DNA of 64,000 bases from Alcanivorax borkumensis SK2 (GTDB lineage: Bacteria; Pseudomonadota; Gammaproteobacteria; Pseudomonadales; Alcanivoracaceae). A model generated the notes under the pieces. That model searched no databases. It was not told the origin of the DNA and worked only from the letters and a program-made list of their open reading frames with translations. Within the stretch, counting starts at the first letter, position 1; every line of letters begins with the position of its first letter. The position numbers and the translations under genes are program-made. Of the stretch, positions 787 through 63,895 are shown one piece after another. The stretch lies in contig NC_008260.1 of NCBI RefSeq assembly GCF_000009365.1, positions 2,637,001 to 2,701,000 of the forward strand. The letters run 5' to 3'.

Positions 787-2634
787 ATGCCGCAGTATCG
801 CTCCCGCACCACCACCCATGGCCGCAATATGGCTGGCGCCCGTGCCCTGTGGCGCGCCACGGGCATGAAGGACGGGGACTTCGGTAAACCGATTATTGCC
901 ATCGCCAACTCCTTTACCCAGTTCGTACCGGGGCATGTGCACCTGAAGGACATGGGCCAGCTGGTGGCCGGTGAAGTCGAGAAGGCCGGCGGCATCGCCA
1001 AGGAATTCAATACCATTGCGGTGGATGACGGCATCGCCATGGGCCACGACGGCATGCTCTATTCTTTGCCCAGCCGCGACATCATTGCGGATTCCGTGGA
1101 GTACATGGTTAACGCCCACTGCGCCGACGCCCTTGTCTGCATCTCTAACTGCGACAAGATCACTCCTGGCATGCTGATGGCATCCATGCGCCTGAATATT
1201 CCGGTGATCTTCGTGTCCGGTGGCCCCATGGAAGCGGGCAAAACCAAGCTGGCCGAGGGCAAGCTGGACCTGGTAGACGCCATGGTGATGGCCGCCGATG
1301 ACAGCGTGGACGAAGAAACCCTGAACGAAGTGGAGCGTTCCGCCTGCCCCACCTGCGGCTCGTGCTCCGGCATGTTCACCGCCAATTCCATGAACTGCCT
1401 AACCGAGGCACTGGGCCTGTCGTTGCCCGGTAACGGCTCACTGCTGGCTACCCACGCGGACCGCCGCGAACTGTTCCTGGAAGCGGGCCGGCGCATCGTG
1501 GACGTTACCCGACGCTACTACGAGCAGGACGAAGAGGCCTTGCTGCCGCGCAATATCGCTTCAGTGAAAGCGTTCGAAAACGCCATGAGCTTGGACATCG
1601 CCATGGGCGGCTCCACTAACACCGTGCTGCACTTGCTAGCCGCAGCACTGGAAGGCGAAGTGGACTTCACCATGGAAGACATCGACCGCCTAAGCCGTAA
1701 GGTGCCGTGCTTGTCGAAAGTGGCCCCCGCCACCCAGAAATACCATATGGAAGATGTGCACCGTGCCGGTGGTGTGATGGGCATTCTCGGCGAACTGGAC
1801 CGGGCTGGCCTGCTCAACCGCGACATTCCCATGGTGCACTCGGCCTCTGTGGCCGAAGCCCTGGAGCATTACGACATCATGCGCACCCAGGATGAAGGCG
1901 TGAAAAAGATGTTCACCGCCGGCCCGGCAGGCATCCCCACCCAGACGGCCTTTAGCCAGGAAACGCGCTGGGAAAGCCTGGATGACGACCGCGAAAACGG
2001 CTGTATCCGCAATTACGAAAATGCCTACAGTAAGGACGGCGGCCTAGCCGTGTTGTACGGCAACATCGCCGAGCGCGGTTGCATCGTGAAAACCGCCGGG
2101 GTGGATGATTCCATTCTCACCTTCACCGGCCGCGCCCGAGTATTCGAATCCCAGGATTCAGCGGTTCGCGCCATCCTCGGTGATCAGATCGTTGCCGGCG
2201 ATGTGGTGGTAATTCGCTACGAAGGCCCCAAAGGCGGCCCGGGCATGCAGGAAATGCTCTACCCCACCAGCTACTTGAAATCCAAAGGGCTGGGCAAGGA
2301 ATGTGCGCTGCTCACCGATGGCCGTTTCTCCGGCGGCACCTCCGGCCTGTCCATTGGCCACGCGTCCCCGGAAGCCGCAGAGGGCGGCGCCATTGCCCTG
2401 GTGAATGAAGGCGACACTATCAATATCGATATTCCCAACCGCACCATCCATCTGGATATCAGCGATGAAGAGCTGGCGCACCGCCGCACTCACATGGAAA
2501 ACCGAGGCAAGCTGGCCTACAAGCCCAAGGAAATTCGCCCACGCCGTGTTTCCACCGCCCTGAAAGCCTACGCCGCACTCACCACCAGTGCAGACCGCGG
2601 CGCAGTGCGTGACTTGAGCCAAATCGGCGAATAA
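787..2634 (+). CDS. ilvD: Dihydroxy-acid dehydratase
   Basis: This enzyme dehydrates 2,3-dihydroxy-isovalerate and its methylvalerate homologue to the 2-oxo acids in valine, isoleucine and CoA synthesis, using an iron-sulfur cluster. The 615-residue product has the usual family length. The opening [18 protein letters not shown] is almost the enterobacterial start, which fixes the ATG at 787 behind a GAGG sequence, although the open frame extends further upstream. Cluster and active-site motifs are present: [12 protein letters not shown] near residue 120, [19 protein letters not shown] near 190-210, and a C-terminal [10 protein letters not shown]. It is a single gene followed by a strong hairpin terminator. 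Only the integrase remnant upstream is unusual. Confidence 0.97.
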
Positions 2635-2645
2635 GCTAAATCATC

Positions 2646-2671
2646 AAGGCGACCATCAGGTCGCCTTTTTT
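2646..2671 (+). terminator. Rho-independent terminator of ilvD
   Basis: AAGGCGACC and GGTCGCCTT form a nine-base-pair stem around an ATCA loop, followed by a run of T. It begins 11 bases after the ilvD stop. Confidence 0.9.
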
Positions 2672-2796
2672 AGGCCTCTTCGTCACGGCCCTACACAATA
2701 AGACAAACGGGTTACATCCCTCTTTGAGGGCCTGCTGTAGAAGTGTAGCCTAGCGGAGTCTCGACGCCCTCTCGGCTAAAAGGAGCAGCCTAGCCC

Positions 2797-4113
2797 ATGA
2801 GCATCAAACACAAGCTGATGCCCCACTTTGCCCGCCTGATTACCAGCGAAGGGCTACAGCAATGGCGCCGTCGTCTGCTGGAGTGGCGCCGAAAACTGAA
2901 ACGCCAACCGCACCAGGCCACCTTCTATTTCCGCATTGATGACCCCTATTCCGTGCTAATGGCCCAGGTACTTCCACGCTTTTCTCAGCACTTCGGCATT
3001 ACCGTTACCCCTCGAGTAATGCTGTATTTAGACCAGCAGATGTACCCAGCCGCAGACATGCTCGCAGAGCTTGCCCCTCGCGATGCGGTTCAGCTGGCCG
3101 AGCTGCACGGCCTGGATTTCCCTAAAGACTGGCGATTGCCTGCCCGAGAAGTCAGCCTGGCAGCAACTCGCTGCCTACTCAAACATGAGGGCGACGAGCG
3201 TTTTTGGAGCCTGGCCGCCGCACTGGCCGATGCCCTGTGGCGTAACGACCACGACACACTGGAAGCCCTGCTCAGTGAATATGGCCAGCAAGCGGCCGAT
3301 CGAGCACAGCTCTCTCTGGAAGCGCGCCGCGACCAGTTTCTTAACGACGGCCACTACCTCACCGGCACCCTACATTACGCCGGTGAATGGTATTGGAGCG
3401 TGGAACGGCTGGACCACCTTGGCCACCGCCTTAACGCGCTGGGACTGGGCAGTGCAGACTGGCCGCTGCCCTACGGCCGCGCCAAGCGGGCACGCTTGAA
3501 AGATACCCCGGAAAGCCTGAAAGGCGCCCCGCTAACGCTGTACTTTTCTTTCCGCAGCCCTTATTCCTATCTCGCCCTCTCGCGGACCTATGCACTGGCC
3601 GATCATTACGGGTTGGCGCTGAAAATTCGCCCGGTGTTGCCCATGGTGATGCGTGGGCTCACCGTCCCCAAAGCCAAGCGTTTCTATATTCTCAAAGATG
3701 CCGCCCGCGAAGCTCGCTTACACGGCGTGCCCTTTGGCAAGGTCTGCGACCCGGTGGGTGCTGGGGTGGAACGCTGCATGGCCATTTGGCCCTTCGCCGA
3801 GAAAGAAGGGCGCTTGCGCGAATGGCTGCGCGCCGCCGCCGTAGGCATCTGGAGCCAGGGCATTAATGCCGCCAGCGATAATGGGCTGAAATTTCTGGTG
3901 GAAAACGCAGGCCTAGACTGGAACCGTGCCCGCCGCTGGCTGGATGACGATAGCTGGCGCGACCTCGCCGAGGACAACCGCAACGCCATGATGGAAGCGG
4001 GTAGCTGGGGCGTGCCCAGCTTTATGACTCAAGATGACATGGTATGGGGGCAAGATCGTTTTGCGATCATTGAGCACAGCCTGCTAGCCTCACAGGCCGA
4101 TGACAGAAACTGA
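2797..4113 (+). CDS. Tandem DsbA-family / 2-hydroxychromene-2-carboxylate isomerase-like protein
   Basis: The 438-residue protein holds two thioredoxin-fold modules of the DsbA/HCCA-isomerase (GST kappa-like) family. The first starts near residue 40 with FYFRIDDPYSVL and the second near residue 245 with LYFSFRSPYSYLAL, the hallmark N-terminal strand and SPYSYL glutathione-site motif. The C-terminal part contains GVPSFM, the cis-proline loop of the fold. No CxxC redox pair is present, so isomerase- or GST-like chemistry is likelier than disulfide exchange. Typical members are about 200 residues, so this is a duplicated or fused version in which the first copy looks more diverged. There is no signal peptide, so it is probably cytoplasmic. 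It stands alone between ilvD and the MAPEG gene. The substrate is unknown. Confidence 0.75.
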   Translation: MSIKHKLMPHFARLITSEGLQQWRRRLLEWRRKLKRQPHQATFYFRIDDPYSVLMAQVLPRFSQHFGITVTPRVMLYLDQQMYPAADMLAELAPRDAVQLAELHGLDFPKDWRLPAREVSLAATRCLLKHEGDERFWSLAAALADALWRNDHDTLEALLSEYGQQAADRAQLSLEARRDQFLNDGHYLTGTLHYAGEWYWSVERLDHLGHRLNALGLGSADWPLPYGRAKRARLKDTPESLKGAPLTLYFSFRSPYSYLALSRTYALADHYGLALKIRPVLPMVMRGLTVPKAKRFYILKDAAREARLHGVPFGKVCDPVGAGVERCMAIWPFAEKEGRLREWLRAAAVGIWSQGINAASDNGLKFLVENAGLDWNRARRWLDDDSWRDLAEDNRNAMMEAGSWGVPSFMTQDDMVWGQDRFAIIEHSLLASQADDRN

Positions 4114-4335
4114 GCTAAGCTGCTCTCTGCTTTAGTAAGAGCGCATGCTTATCACCTGAACGCGGTGCCGGCGAACTCAAGAGTGAAGGGTTTGCCGGCT
4201 CAGCACAAAATGCAGCCAGGGCCTTGTTCCGGTTCCAGCTTAAGCCTTGTCGCTTGCTTTGCACTGCAATCGTCATGTAAGCATAGCCCCTTAATTACAT
4301 TAAAAATTACATTAAAAAACCTTGGAGATATCATT

Positions 4336-4722
4336 ATGACCCTTGCCTATTGGTGTGTGCTTGCCGCCATCGTTTTGCCTTACCTGTCCACTTCACTGGC
4401 CAAGTTTCAAGGTGGTTTCGGCCCCAAACAGAACCATAACCCCCGCGAATTTCTAGAAACATTACAGGGCAGCCGCAAGCGCGCGCACTGGGCCCAACAA
4501 AACGGCTTTGAAGTCACCCCGGCTTTTGCCGCTGCGGTAATCATTGCCCACCTGGCGGCCACATCACCGCAGGGCACCATTGATGGCATCGCGCTGGCCT
4601 TTGTCGTCAGCCGCATCCTGTTCACGCTTTGCTACGTGGCAGACTGGGCCAGTGCGCGCACCTTGGTTTGGGCCTTCGGCATGGGTTGTATCGTTGCGCT
4701 GTTTGTTGGCGTTGGCGGCTAA
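4336..4722 (+). CDS. MAPEG family membrane protein
   Basis: A 128-residue integral membrane protein with the MAPEG (membrane-associated eicosanoid and glutathione metabolism) pattern. A first helix (residues 1-20) is followed by a polar loop with NPREFLETLQGSRKRAHWAQQNGFE, then a helix containing FAAAVIIAHLAA and two C-terminal helices with RILFTLCYVADW and RTLVWAFGMGC. The ATG at 4336 follows TTGGAGAT and is preferred to the longer frame from 4165, whose extra residues do not look like protein. Bacterial members are mostly uncharacterised; glutathione-dependent transferase or peroxidase activity is known for some relatives. The next gene, a ferredoxin-fused reductase, lies 91 bases downstream. 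Confidence 0.85.
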   Translation: MTLAYWCVLAAIVLPYLSTSLAKFQGGFGPKQNHNPREFLETLQGSRKRAHWAQQNGFEVTPAFAAAVIIAHLAATSPQGTIDGIALAFVVSRILFTLCYVADWASARTLVWAFGMGCIVALFVGVGG

Positions 4723-60363: not shown

Positions 60364-60525
60364 TTACTCAAGGCAAGTTGAGCACAGCTCTCGCTGAGTC
60401 AACCAGCGCTAATACTCAAGTCTGTGGCGATATGCCACATTCCAGCCAGCCGGCGATCTAAAGATAATCCCCCACCTACAGCGCAGACCTTGTCGCGTGC
60501 TTTGTTCAAAAAATCGGGGATTATC

Positions 60526-61446
60526 ATGCGAATTCTGACTCTGGCCACCGCATCCTTAGCCACCATTCTGACAGGTTGCGGAGGCTCAAGTTCATCGGGC
60601 GACCGTGCTTGGGAGAGCAGCAGATCCAGCACCGCTCGCACCATCGAAATTCCAGTAAAGGCCGTGGCAGGGACGACTGACATCAGCTGCGATGCAACCT
60701 TGCAGTCCCTCGGTACCGCAGGCACGGAAGTCAGCCTGGTGGATTTCCGCTTCTTCGTTCACGATCTGGCGGTGGTTACCGATGAAGGCCAGGTTATTCC
60801 CGTAGCACTGGACGCAGACGCCGAATCGCAAAACGCCGACGTAGCCCTGCTCGATTTCCGCGACAAAGATGAGAACTGTGCCGGCGAAGGAGCCAACACG
60901 AATTTCAACGACACCATTACCATCAAAGTGGATGTGGACAGTGAGCTCGTTATTAGCGACCTGCAGTTCACTCTGGGCGTGCCGTTCGAACTCAATCATT
61001 TGGATCAGTCACTGGCGGAAGAACCGCTGCGCAACCCAGGGAAAGCTAGCGGCATGGCCTGGAGCTGGCGGGGAGGTTACAAATTTACCGGCCTGGATGT
61101 GAAACCGGTAAGCGACGACATCTCTAAAAACTGGCATATCCATATCGGTAGCACCGGCTGTACCGCTGACCCCGCTGAAGGTGAAGAACCCGTACCCTGC
61201 CCCAATCCAAACCGCGCAACGATTAAGCTGCCCTTAGAAGGAGCAAATTTAGAAGACATCGCCATTCAACTGGACTACGCCAAACTGGTGGAAGGAAGCA
61301 ATCTATCCCAAGATGAAGGCGGTGCCAGTGGTTGTATGTCAGGATTCAGCGACCCGGAATGTCCCGCAATTTTCAAGCGCCTGGGCCTGCCATGGGGTGA
61401 CACCGAAGCAGTCGAGCAAAGTGTCTTTTCTATCGTACCGAAATGA
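60526..61446 (+). CDS. mbnP: MbnP family copper-binding lipoprotein
   Basis: A 306-residue lipoprotein (signal ending ILTGC, cysteine 18) of the family once named metallo-mystery pair four-Cys protein. Family features are VDFRFFVHDLAVVTDEGQVIPV near 70-92, a SGMAWSWRGGYKF block with Trp179 and Trp181, HIHIGSTGC near 206, and four cysteines in TGC, VPC, SGC and PEC contexts. In the characterised member a partner dihaem enzyme (MbnH) oxidises a tryptophan to kynurenine and the product binds copper. Which tryptophan would be changed here is not proven. It overlaps mbnH by four bases. The start at 60526 follows the terminating hairpin of an upstream leader and is set by the lipobox. Confidence 0.88.
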   Translation: MRILTLATASLATILTGCGGSSSSGDRAWESSRSSTARTIEIPVKAVAGTTDISCDATLQSLGTAGTEVSLVDFRFFVHDLAVVTDEGQVIPVALDADAESQNADVALLDFRDKDENCAGEGANTNFNDTITIKVDVDSELVISDLQFTLGVPFELNHLDQSLAEEPLRNPGKASGMAWSWRGGYKFTGLDVKPVSDDISKNWHIHIGSTGCTADPAEGEEPVPCPNPNRATIKLPLEGANLEDIAIQLDYAKLVEGSNLSQDEGGASGCMSGFSDPECPAIFKRLGLPWGDTEAVEQSVFSIVPK

Positions 61447-62651
61447 TGAAGAAGCCATTTCTCCTGTTGGCCGGGCAATCGCCCGGCCTTTTCCTTGTGC
61501 TCGGCACGCTGCTCCTAAGCGGCTGCCCAGAGCAGAGCGAAACCCGGGTAGATGATCAAGGCGCGTCCTACTCCGCCTATGACTGGCAACTCCCGGAAAA
61601 CATTCCGCTGCCCCGCGAACCGGCGGACAACCCGATGACGGAAGAAAAGTTTCAACTCGGCCGGCATCTATTCTATGACAAGCGACTCTCCGTCAATGGC
61701 ACCATCAGCTGCTCCAGCTGCCACCACCAGGACAAAGCCTTTAGTGATGGCGTTGACCGCCCCGCTGGCGCCACCGGCACACTTCACCCGCGTAACAGCC
61801 AAGCGTTGGTGAATGTGGCCTGGTACAACACCCTCACCTGGGGCAACCCAGTGCTCAGCACCATTGAACAGCAAATTATGCTGCCCCTGTTTGGTGATGA
61901 CCCTATCGAACATGGCATCAATGGCGCTAACTCGGAACAGATTCTCATGAATCTGCAATCCGACCCTGTCTATGCGCCGTTGTTTGCAGCGGCCTTTCCT
62001 GAGCAGGATGAGCCGTTATTTGGCGACACTGCCTATAGCAACATCGTCAAATCATTGGCTTCCTTTGTGCGGGGTTTGGCGTCGTTCAATAGCCCGTTTG
62101 ATCGCAATGAGCTATCCGCCTCAGCCAAGCGCGGTTCCGCCCTGTTCAACAGTGAAAAGCTGGAATGTTTTCATTGTCATGGAACCTACAATTTCAGCGA
62201 TGCCACAGTGGACCGTCGCACCAGTTATATCGAAGCACAATTCCACAACAATGGTCTGTACAACATCGATGGCCTTGGAGGCTACCCCGAACCCAATACC
62301 GGTCGCTACGAACTGACCGGCAAAGCCCATCACATGGGTCAGTTCAGGGCTCCCTCGTTAAGAAACGTAGCCCTCAGCGCCCCCTATAACCACGACGGTT
62401 CCGTGGAAACGCTGGAACAGGTGATACGCAACTACGCGGCAGGTGGGCGCAACATTACCAGCGGCCCTAATACAGGCGACGGGCGCATGAGCCCATACAA
62501 AGATAGCTTTATCGTTTCTTTCTCTATTTCCGATTCTGAAATAGCCGATGTGGTGGCTTTCCTGGAATCGCTCACCGACGAAGAATTCATTAATAACCCG
62601 CGTTTTTCCAACCCCTGGACCGAGAGCAGCCCGCAGGACACCACCCCATGA
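61443..62651 (+). CDS. mbnH: MbnH family dihaem cytochrome c peroxidase-like enzyme
   Basis: A 402-residue lipoprotein-type protein (signal LLLSGC, cysteine 28) of the bacterial cytochrome c peroxidase/MauG superfamily. Two haem c sites are CSSCH (90-94) and CFHCH (242-246). Other family features are FQLGRHLFYDKRLSVNGTISC before the first haem, RNSQALVNVAWYNTLTWGNP near 118, and a C-terminal MGQFRAPSLRNVALSAPYNHDGSVETLEQVI near 299-329. It is predicted to oxidise a tryptophan of the adjacent MbnP to kynurenine. It overlaps mbnP and the next gene by four bases each. Confidence 0.9.
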   Translation: MMKKPFLLLAGQSPGLFLVLGTLLLSGCPEQSETRVDDQGASYSAYDWQLPENIPLPREPADNPMTEEKFQLGRHLFYDKRLSVNGTISCSSCHHQDKAFSDGVDRPAGATGTLHPRNSQALVNVAWYNTLTWGNPVLSTIEQQIMLPLFGDDPIEHGINGANSEQILMNLQSDPVYAPLFAAAFPEQDEPLFGDTAYSNIVKSLASFVRGLASFNSPFDRNELSASAKRGSALFNSEKLECFHCHGTYNFSDATVDRRTSYIEAQFHNNGLYNIDGLGGYPEPNTGRYELTGKAHHMGQFRAPSLRNVALSAPYNHDGSVETLEQVIRNYAAGGRNITSGPNTGDGRMSPYKDSFIVSFSISDSEIADVVAFLESLTDEEFINNPRFSNPWTESSPQDTTP

Positions 62652-63895
62652 AATTCCGTTTTTTAGCTCCACTGATGGCTGCCAGCTCCCTGAGCCTGGC
62701 ACACAGTGTGCCCAGCCAAAATAACCCCACCACCGTAGAAGCCAGTCTCGCCGCCACATGGCGGTCCGCTAACGTGATTGGCGATTACGATTACTGGCAA
62801 ATCCCTGGCACCATGATGGGAGGCGAAGCTTGGCCGGCGGAAAAAGGGGCGCAGATTGATGAACTGAACCTGGGGGTCGCTCACCGTATTGATGAGAATT
62901 TCTACGGGGTCATCAAATTCAACCACCACGCCGGCGGTGATGATGATCACGGCGGTGCCGAGCTAGAGCATGCGTATGTCGGCTGGGTCTGTTGTGACGA
63001 TACCGGACCCTGGCTGGTGGAGGCAGGCAGGATGTCTGCCCAATTCTCCCCTGGGCTGGCTCAGCATTCCGTAGACCGGCTCGCCAGCGAAAGTCCGCTA
63101 GCGCTGGATGTGCTGTTCGGGCGCGATTTCCATGATGATGGCTTACGCTTCTGGTGGCATCAAATGGCAGGCTTTTCCCTTGGCGCTGAGGTCTGGAAAG
63201 GCAAAGCCTTCCCCGCTACCGACACAGAGAATGGCGGCGCCTGGGATGTATTTGGCCAATACCAGTGGCAAGGCGAACGGTTGGCGCTAACGCTGGGCGG
63301 GTGGTTCTACAGCGCAGAAGCGGAGTCACGTAGCGACCATCGCTACGGAGGCGGCCATCAACATGTACCGGTAGCACCTCCAGGCGAAATCGCCACCCTC
63401 TTTCCGGACACACGCTACACCGGCGAAACAGAAATCGCCGGCGCTCACTTCAAGCTGGGATATAAACTCAATCCGGATTGGGCATTAGCCCTCGACGGTG
63501 AGTGGATGCAGGCAAAACCCGATGGCGTAGTGCATGACGGCATCGGCCGTGAAGCAAACTTCACCGCCACCCAGCAAGGCGGCTGGCTACAGCCCTCCAT
63601 TACTTGGCGAGCGCATACCTTTGGGCTGCGTGCAGAACAACTGAACACCGACAACAAGCTCACCGGTGCCGCAGCGCCACAATTAGCGCAGGACAGCGGG
63701 TTAGCCAATCCTCTTGAGCATGATCCGCAGCGCCTCACCGCCATCTGGCGGTGGCAATGGCGGAAAAATATCGCCATCCGCGCGGAAGCCGTTCAGGACG
63801 AGTCCCTGCCCGAAAAAGAGCATCGCTGGAACCTGGGAATTGTCTGGAAAGAAACCTTATGGTCTAGCAAAACGGGGCTGCGCGGTCATCATTAA
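62648..63895 (+). CDS. Outer-membrane beta-barrel protein of the MbnP-MbnH operon
   Basis: A 415-residue protein with a signal peptide (cut near LAHS) and a mature part of alternating strands consistent with a 14-18-strand barrel: EASLAATWRSANV, QIDELNLGVAHRIDENFYGVIKFNHHAGGDDDHGG, FGQYQWQGERLALTLGGWFY, EIAGAHFKLGYKL and a C-terminal RWNLGIVWKETLW. Two His-rich segments (NHHAGGDDDHGG near 96-107 and HRYGGGHQHVP near 231-241) and a CC pair in WVCCDD (about 117) could bind metal. No Pfam name is recalled. The four-base overlap with mbnH shows that it belongs to the same operon. Confidence 0.75.
   Translation: MKFRFLAPLMAASSLSLAHSVPSQNNPTTVEASLAATWRSANVIGDYDYWQIPGTMMGGEAWPAEKGAQIDELNLGVAHRIDENFYGVIKFNHHAGGDDDHGGAELEHAYVGWVCCDDTGPWLVEAGRMSAQFSPGLAQHSVDRLASESPLALDVLFGRDFHDDGLRFWWHQMAGFSLGAEVWKGKAFPATDTENGGAWDVFGQYQWQGERLALTLGGWFYSAEAESRSDHRYGGGHQHVPVAPPGEIATLFPDTRYTGETEIAGAHFKLGYKLNPDWALALDGEWMQAKPDGVVHDGIGREANFTATQQGGWLQPSITWRAHTFGLRAEQLNTDNKLTGAAAPQLAQDSGLANPLEHDPQRLTAIWRWQWRKNIAIRAEAVQDESLPEKEHRWNLGIVWKETLWSSKTGLRGHH

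What the first reader, a model, noticed from the sequence alone, without database searches (positions are those of the whole stretch)
60526..63895. Overlapping three-gene MbnP-MbnH-outer-membrane-barrel operon, without methanobactin
Sequence shows three genes in 4-base overlaps: a lipoprotein with the MbnP pattern (Trp179, Trp181 and a four-cysteine pattern), a dihaem peroxidase-like lipoprotein (CSSCH, CFHCH) and a beta-barrel protein. Known biology: MbnH converts a tryptophan of MbnP to kynurenine, giving a copper site. What is unusual is the third, tightly coupled outer-membrane protein with His-rich segments, no methanobactin synthesis genes, and insertion between cobC and the btuB operon. 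Inference: a complete copper-acquisition or copper-sequestration line from the outer membrane to a kynurenine site. This is my best candidate for an undescribed system.
Basis: partly seen in the sequence, partly recalled or inferred. Interest (0 to 1): 0.85.

Follow-up and report, generated by a model that had tools for sequence, protein, structure and literature searches.

The report
Copper-site gene pair with partner porin
A marine bacterium carries a conserved three-gene unit that joins a known pair of genes, thought to build an unusual copper-binding site, to a histidine-marked outer-membrane channel whose cousins sit beside zinc-type importers, suggesting a little-known route for bringing copper into the cell.

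Summary
Three overlapping genes (60526-63895, +) encode an MbnP lipoprotein (TIGR04052, 271 bits, cut-off 140), an MbnH di-haem lipoprotein (TIGR04039, 516 bits, cut-off 363) and a predicted 16-stranded outer-membrane barrel with no Pfam or NCBIfam family over cut-off. The third gene is a real partner: all 19 loci found in named genomes that encode relatives of it have mbnP-mbnH directly upstream. New here: the barrel belongs to a wide porin-like superfamily. All 20 of the non-MbnPH relatives examined (of 100) lie beside a ZnuA-like binding protein and a permease. A His-x-His in loop 5 is present in 24 of 24 barrels with a seen MbnPH context and 18 of 20 ABC-linked ones. The predicted mature barrel starts with His in 47 of 48 homologues. 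Best reading: a TonB-independent, histidine-marked metal porin, probably for copper, that feeds an MbnP kynurenine site matured by MbnH. Not shown: copper binding, kynurenine, transport. MbnPH without methanobactin is already known; the porin and its zinc-importer kinship were not found in print in the library searched. New variant of a known kind.

The parts
60526..61446 (+). mbnP: outer-membrane-type lipoprotein (lipobox LTGC, Cys18), predicted kynurenine/copper-site protein
   Evidence: TIGR04052 271 bits (cut-off 140), PF20243 111 bits; PDB 7l6g E 6e-36
61060..61068 (+). WxW motif (Trp179, Trp181), candidate Trp-to-Kyn residue(s)
   Evidence: each conserved in 94% of 48 aligned MbnPs
60997..60999 (+). 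MbnP His158, candidate metal ligand
   Evidence: conserved in 98% of 48; ligand role inferred
61141..61143 (+). MbnP His206, candidate metal ligand
   Evidence: conserved in 96% of 48; ligand role inferred
61443..62651 (+). mbnH: di-haem MauG-like lipoprotein (lipobox LSGC, Cys28), predicted tryptophan-modifying enzyme
   Evidence: TIGR04039 516 bits (cut-off 363); PDB 6e1c 'Di-heme enzyme' E 5e-119
61710..61724 (+). MbnH haem site 1, CSSCH (residues 90-94)
   Evidence: C90, C93, H94 in 100% of 45
62166..62180 (+). MbnH haem site 2, CFHCH (residues 242-246)
   Evidence: C242, H244, C245, H246 in 100% of 45
62648..63895 (+). HxH porin: predicted 16-stranded outer-membrane barrel, no Pfam or NCBIfam family over cut-off
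   Evidence: profile of ABC-linked barrels matches it at E 9e-29
62702..62704 (+). His19, predicted first residue of the mature barrel
   Evidence: His in 47 of 48 homologues, preceded by Ala or Gly; cleavage site judged by the -1 residue, no signal-peptide program run
63065..63067 (+). His140 in the loop 3 region
   Evidence: 48 of 48 homologues; 22 of 24 barrels with MbnPH context and 20 of 20 ABC-linked
63356..63364 (+). His237-x-His239 in loop 5
   Evidence: 48 of 48 homologues; 24 of 24 with MbnPH context, 18 of 20 ABC-linked by exact pattern

Best explanation
The operon is a copper-acquisition module of the cell envelope. The barrel is a TonB-independent, substrate-specific 16-stranded porin in which histidines of loop 3 (His140) and loop 5 (His237-x-His239) select a transition-metal ion at the entrance or constriction. 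The ion passes to the periplasmic mouth, where the mature N-terminal histidine should lie, and is taken up by MbnP, a lipoprotein held at the inner face of the outer membrane, whose site was matured by MbnH through oxidation of a WxW tryptophan to kynurenine. MbnP then holds or passes on the copper. Shown here: gene order, family membership of MbnP and MbnH, linkage of the barrel, its predicted porin fold, its kinship with ABC-linked barrels and the conserved histidines. Inferred: metal selectivity, copper as the substrate, direction, hand-over, cell location. The kynurenine chemistry is recalled from work on MbnP/MbnH that I did not read here.
For: All 19 barrel loci found in named genomes have mbnP-mbnH directly upstream, in Alcanivorax, Alloalcanivorax, Marinobacter, Oleispira, Bacterioplanes, Thalassolituus, Oleibacter and MAGs, with several different flanks; 8 of 8 barrel-bearing family genomes, at least one of them also among the 19, agree. 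The barrel's superfamily reaches 102 of 369 class genomes; 20 of 20 non-MbnPH members examined are followed by a ZnuA-like binding protein and a permease (PF01297 and PF00950 over cut-off in the two sets scanned, L146 and L050). A profile made from ABC-linked barrels alone finds the window barrel (E 9e-29) and none of 15 reversed controls; profile-profile probability 99.9%. The 24 barrels with seen MbnPH context form one clade (support 1.0), all with HxH. Both paralogues lie in one run of genes in Marinobacter sp. F3R08 (L050). Copper genes lie beside MbnPH in L084, L036 and L087. Fold: OprP/OprO rank first; loop 3 is the usual constriction loop of porins (PMC4849052, passages).
Against: No direct evidence for copper; the nearest kin are zinc-type, so zinc or another metal is possible. 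Loop 5 around the HxH is low-confidence in the model (mean pLDDT 58 for residues 231-240), and I had no coordinates to measure a site. Of the 27 MbnPH genomes reviewed only 7 carry this barrel, so MbnPH does not need it. The barrel has no match in 16 of 16 other genomes of the genus, so it is dispensable there. Conservation of His is no higher than that of Arg in the same alignment (9 of 19 against 10 of 19). General porins are held to be the main Cu(II) route except under limitation (PMC12914433, passage).
Confidence: 0.55

Rival explanations
1. Copper sequestration or detoxification: the barrel and MbnP-MbnH bind excess copper at the outer membrane, so that the module protects rather than feeds the cell.
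For: MbnP and MbnH both carry lipoboxes; a DUF2282/bufferin-like gene follows the barrel in L036, and the own genome has a bufferin-like operon elsewhere.
Against: The barrel's superfamily sits with importer genes, and an open porin would let copper in. I did not search the neighbourhoods for efflux pumps or multicopper oxidases, so their absence is not claimed.
Confidence: 0.2
2. The barrel carries zinc or another divalent metal, or a metal chelate; MbnPH uses or guards that metal, or merely shares regulation.
For: The nearest kin are ZnuA-linked, one named 'Zinc-re...' in UniRef; a ZrgA zinc-uptake gene lies near the operon in L054 and a ZnuA-type set in L050.
Against: The 24 barrels with MbnPH context form one clade (support 1.0) with their own changes: N-terminal His, Glu108 to His in 20 of 24 and Trp323 to His in 19 of 24. 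PCu(A)C genes flank the operon in L084.
Confidence: 0.15
3. The barrel is a structural or export partner, for instance displaying MbnP at the cell surface as CorA is displayed, without transporting metal.
For: CorA, a functional analogue, is surface-associated (PMC3912023, abstract and passages); tight operon.
Against: The homologues are linked to metal ABC-importer genes without MbnP; porin-like fold.
Confidence: 0.07
4. An ordinary non-specific porin that happens to be in the operon.
Against: Linkage in all 19 loci found, with changing flanks, and the kept HxH.
Confidence: 0.03

Closest known systems
MbnP-MbnH pair of methanobactin operons and beyond (TIGR04052/TIGR04039; PDB 7l6g, 6e1c)
   Same: Both proteins are family members over the curated cut-offs, with WxW and both haem sites.
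   Different: No methanobactin genes found; the outer-membrane partner is a porin-like barrel instead of the TonB-dependent MbnT reported near Mbn-type pairs (PMC3621798, passages).
ZnuA/ABC-3-linked HxH barrels (unnamed superfamily; one member 'Zinc-re...' in UniRef)
   Same: Homologous barrel, HxH in loop 5 and His in loop 3, same strand order in a weaker model.
   Different: The window's operon has MbnP-MbnH instead of binding protein and permease; mature N-terminal His; His for Glu108 and Trp323.
OprP/OprO (Porin_O_P)
   Different: Window protein below the PF07396 cut-off (13.9 bits), 12% identity to OprP/OprO; an arginine ladder was not looked for.
RopAe of Rhizobium etli (Porin_2), with MnoP as a manganese precedent
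   Same: Porin-like route proposed for copper, induced under copper limitation (PMC6011978, passages).
   Different: Described there as Porin_2 (PF02530), a family not hit by the window barrel; no MbnPH mentioned in the passages seen.
OprC/NosA and CrtA copper TonB-dependent transporters
   Same: Outer-membrane copper import (PMC8610252, PMC12914433, PMC7558416, passages).
   Different: 22-stranded barrel with plug; the window barrel has no plug-domain hit.
CorA-CorB and MopE-SACCP
   Same: Kynurenine copper-site protein with a di-haem peroxidase-like partner (PMC3912023, passages).
   Different: MbnP is said not to be markedly similar to MopE/CorA (PMC3621798, passage); not compared here.

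Membership tests
MbnP (TIGR04052) | score over the curated cut-off | tested here: met
   271 vs 140 bits
MbnP (TIGR04052) | WxW and conserved Cys pattern | tested here: met
   W179, W181 and six Cys conserved
MbnP (TIGR04052) | kynurenine formed and copper bound | not testable with these tools
   needs mass spectrometry and metal analysis
MbnH (TIGR04039) | score over the cut-off and two c-type haem motifs | tested here: met
   516 vs 363 bits; CSSCH, CFHCH
MbnH (TIGR04039) | encoded next to mbnP | tested here: met
   4-base overlap
MauG (TIGR03791) | score over the cut-off | tested here: not met
   145.8 vs 443.85 bits
Methanobactin operon | MbnB present | tested here: not met
   best 27 vs 325 bits, overlapping the PF05114 protein at G000 1733382-1734197
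Methanobactin operon | MbnC present | tested here: inconclusive
   no match, but no control genome rang
Porin_O_P (PF07396) | score over the gathering cut-off | tested here: not met
   13.9 vs 20.9 bits
Porin_O_P (PF07396) | OprP-like 16-stranded fold | tested here: met
TonB-dependent copper receptor (TIGR01778) | plug domain and TonB-receptor barrel | tested here: not met
   no plug or TonB_dep_Rec hit at E up to 1, no NCBIfam hit
HxH metal-porin superfamily (defined here) | profile match, HxH in loop 5 | tested here: met
   ABC-only profile E 9e-29; His237, His239
HxH metal-porin superfamily, ABC-linked branch | binding protein and permease directly downstream | tested here: not met
   no match to either profile in L031

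The most novel reading that the evidence does not exclude
A widespread but undescribed superfamily of TonB-independent, histidine-marked metal porins supplies periplasmic acceptors. One branch feeds ZnuA-type ABC importers; another has switched to copper and feeds an enzyme-made kynurenine site in MbnP. This would be a dedicated copper porin with a built-in acceptor, unlike the copper-specific outer-membrane transporters named so far, which a 2026 paper places in the TonB-dependent superfamily.
Probability: 0.4. Interest if true: 0.8.

Novelty: new variant of a known kind. Interest (0 to 1): 0.62.

Why it matters
[quoted passage not shown] The MbnPH pair is conserved far beyond methanobactin producers (PMC3621798, passage). 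The operon gives that pair an outer-membrane partner with a testable motif (His1, HxH), and ties it to a large barrel superfamily beside zinc-type importer genes. That makes the question of how metal ions cross the outer membrane without TonB directly testable in a marine oil degrader.

Tried and rejected
Cobalamin link: rejected. The window's eight cobalamin proteins, searched in the loci of the 19 named relatives, gave one hit at E up to 1e-15, a general ABC ATPase in L054 at 32% identity. GC of the operon (56.2%) does not stand out from the window (57.1%).

Leader hairpin 60463-60525 (10-bp perfect arms before the start codon; fold z -2.05, 6 of 200 shuffles fold as well): of 25 loci scanned with a simple script only the window has this repeat; 10 others gave unrelated inverted repeats and 14 gave none (start codons not curated). 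Not pursued as a conserved switch.

CxxC-start barrels beside other MbnPH pairs (L033, L039, L041, L042, L043): profile comparison with this barrel gave probability 3.3%, so I do not treat them as homologues; distant kinship is not excluded.

L091 was at first missed as a barrel homologue, and the ABC-only profile also misses it. With a leave-one-out profile of the other barrels it matches at E 4e-12, and it is counted.

My first joint alignment held 15 rows of the MbnPH branch, of which only 10 have a context I saw; P0042, P0044, P0046, P0047 and P0050 are homologues of unseen context. I therefore repeated it with 24 barrels of seen context and quote those counts. L057 (split frame) and L099 (same organism) were left out there; of the ABC-linked set, L153 was left out of the motif counts (unclear ORF) and L050's own ABC-linked barrel was added, giving 20.

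Methanobactin: no MbnB over cut-off. The PF05114 enzyme lies in a bufferin-like operon. OprC-type receptor: no match over cut-off in the genome.

Literature: nothing on this barrel or the three-gene operon (9 of 10 allowed; listings only, with passages read in seven papers). The library lacks most subscription papers. Work on MbnH (JBC 2019) and on kynurenine in MbnP (PNAS 2021) is recalled, did not appear in these searches and was not read; it may list neighbours.

Second structure model (ABC-linked P0053) has mean pLDDT 70 only; used for strand order, not searched for fold matches.
Full report
WHAT IS THERE. The window is G000:C1:2637001-2701000 of a single-contig genome of 3,120,143 bases; that size is the one I recall for Alcanivorax borkumensis SK2, so the name is an inference. 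At 60526-63895 (+) lie three genes with two 4-base overlaps. The first is MbnP: TIGR04052 271 bits against a cut-off of 140, PF20243 111 bits, and a phmmer match to 7l6g at E 6e-36. The second is MbnH: TIGR04039 516 bits against 363, with a match to 6e1c at E 5e-119; it falls far below the MauG cut-off (145.8 against 443.85 bits). The third has no family over cut-off in Pfam or NCBIfam. Both MbnP and MbnH carry lipoboxes (LTGC, LSGC) whose +2 residues are Gly and Pro, so by the Lol rule (recalled) they should sit in the outer membrane.

RESIDUES. In alignments of 48 MbnPs and 45 MbnHs taken from the loci fetched up to then, with duplicates L031 and L099 dropped, His158 (98%), Trp179 and Trp181 (94% each), His206 (96%) and six cysteines besides the lipobox one are conserved in MbnP. 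Both haem motifs' Cys and His, Trp133 and His317 are in all 45 MbnHs.

LINKAGE. A scan of the named genome collection with the barrel alignment found 19 loci. All 19 have MbnH directly upstream on the same strand and MbnP before it; L046's MbnP runs to a contig end, and L057 (Alloalcanivorax gelatiniphagus) has its barrel split between two frames. The sources are Alcanivorax, Alloalcanivorax, Marinobacter, Oleispira, Bacterioplanes, Thalassolituus, Oleibacter and MAGs of Oceanospirillaceae, Alcanivoracaceae, Moraxellaceae and an unplaced gammaproteobacterium. By eye the flanking genes agree within small groups of close relatives and differ between them. The barrel has no match in 16 of 16 other genomes of the window's genus. 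The unit is therefore patchy and was probably passed between lineages. The cobalamin neighbours here (BtuB-like receptor with riboswitch; CobD/CobC-type decarboxylase and CbiB) are local.

THE CONVERSE. How often does an MbnPH pair have this barrel? The class search gave 13 of 369 genomes with MbnH over cut-off (214 with any match, as the haem family is wide); the phylum search gave 16 of 398 with MbnP over cut-off (20 with any match). Two are shared, so these are 27 distinct genomes with the pair; in L033 another ORF lies between mbnP and mbnH. Seven have an HxH barrel after mbnH (G000, G074, G547, G435, G717, G369, G544). Five have a different outer-membrane-like protein that starts with CxxC, plus a lipoprotein (G284, G145, G025, G137, G154). 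Seven have a divergently transcribed secreted protein of 901-951 aa, all homologous to one another (44-47% identity to that of G697; G348, G617, G669, G685, G697, G478, G566; the one scanned, of G697, is choice-of-anchor B TIGR04312, 455 bits). Eight have other neighbours, two of them with TonB-dependent receptors (L086, L087). Three further genomes have an MbnP below cut-off and no MbnH in the stretch fetched (L097, L098, L100), and one (G667) was not fetched. So the barrel is one of several partners, not a constant one.

A LARGER FAMILY. A profile of 15 divergent barrels of this branch (A3) matches 102 of 369 class genomes at E up to 0.001. The two best are the MbnPH-linked G000 and G074. 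I fetched 20 of the other 100, the 18 next best and two lower ones. All 20 have a ZnuA-like substrate-binding protein and a permease downstream of the barrel on the same strand. The two profiles used for that count were built from 10 loci each, so those match by construction. Pfam independently calls ZnuA (PF01297) and ABC-3 (PF00950) over cut-off in L146 and L050. The remaining 80 were not examined. A profile built from 20 ABC-linked barrels alone finds 14 of the 15 barrels of A3 (E 1e-33 to 2e-9), L091 being missed, and none of 15 reversed sequences; profile-profile probability is 99.9%. In a FastTree of 44 sequences the 24 barrels whose MbnPH context I saw fall together with support 1.0, apart from 20 ABC-linked ones; the tree is unrooted and rests on a sample.

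MOTIF. In that alignment the loop-5 HxH is in 24 of 24 MbnPH-linked and 18 of 20 ABC-linked barrels by exact pattern; L146 reads HxxH and L162 lacks it. His140 is kept in 22 of 24 and 20 of 20. Position 108 is His in 20 of 24 against Glu in 19 of 20; position 323 is His in 19 of 24 against Trp in 20 of 20. The N-terminal His column is His in 22 of 24 MbnPH-linked barrels (L084 is misaligned there and has His after Ala-Ala-Ala by eye; L091 has none) and is a gap or another residue in the ABC-linked ones listed. In Marinobacter sp. F3R08 (L050) an ABC-type set (barrel, ZnuA-like, permease) runs straight into mbnP-mbnH-barrel on the same strand. A second model, of ABC-linked P0053, has the same strand order with its histidines in the loops between strands 5/6 and 9/10, at mean pLDDT 70 only.

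COPPER. Direct evidence is absent. Indirect evidence: MbnP family knowledge (recalled; the 2013 paper itself said that no data then linked MbnP homologues to copper, PMC3621798, passages); PCu(A)C genes on both sides of the operon in L084, CopD near the pair in L087, and a DUF2282/bufferin-like gene after the barrel in L036 (DUF2282 over cut-off, BufA2 below it: 24 against 60 bits). Against: zinc kinship, ZrgA near the operon in L054 and a ZnuA-type set beside it in L050.

MECHANISM. Metal enters the barrel at the loop histidines, leaves near the N-terminal histidine on the periplasmic side, and is bound by MbnP at a site that MbnH makes by oxidising a tryptophan. Order, families, linkage and motifs are shown; selectivity, direction, hand-over and chemistry are inferred. 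The parallel with the ABC branch (same kind of porin, then a periplasmic metal-binding protein) is the strongest argument.

NOVELTY. The pair and its life outside methanobactin are known. A porin-like copper route has a precedent in RopAe (PMC6011978, passages). I found no paper on this barrel, its HxH motif or the three-gene operon in nine searches, within a library that lacks most subscription papers. I rate it a new variant of a known kind.

On review I replaced the 15-row counts by those, corrected the account, and dropped a remark on efflux genes that no call had tested.

Noticed in passing
L163 (G000:C1:1730000-1737500), 2556-4552 (-): Bufferin-like operon in the same genome: a Cys-rich EGKCG-repeat peptide (no Pfam hit), a PF05114 enzyme and a DUF2063 partner; it explains the weak MbnB hit.
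   Followed up: partly
L033, L039, L041, L042, L043: Other MbnPH pairs sit with a different ~300 aa outer-membrane-like protein whose predicted mature start is CxxC..GDPT, plus a ~250-265 aa lipoprotein; no Pfam or NCBIfam family over cut-off in the three of five sets scanned.
   Followed up: partly
L040, L090, L092-L096: In seven genomes a homologous 901-951 aa secreted protein is transcribed divergently from mbnP; all seven carry an H-x-[ED]-H-D-[KR]-A-R-F stretch at the likely mature start, another possible N-terminal histidine metal site.
   Followed up: partly
L143-L162: ABC-linked HxH barrels are often preceded by a small His/Cys-rich protein (about 90-115 aa); the one scanned had no Pfam hit.
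   Followed up: no
window 60463-60525: Perfect 10-bp inverted repeat abutting the mbnP start codon (GATAATCCCC/GGGGATTATC) that could fold over the ribosome-binding site; not found in 24 other loci by a simple scan.
   Followed up: partly
L057 6968-8238 and L099: In Alloalcanivorax gelatiniphagus the barrel is split between two overlapping frames: a frameshift or a sequencing error.
   Followed up: no
L044, L048, L031: MbnP of Alcanivorax sp. 24 is only 33% identical to the window's while its barrel is 62%; Marinobacter sp. F3R11 shows 46% and 56%: the partners seem to evolve at different rates or by exchange.
   Followed up: no
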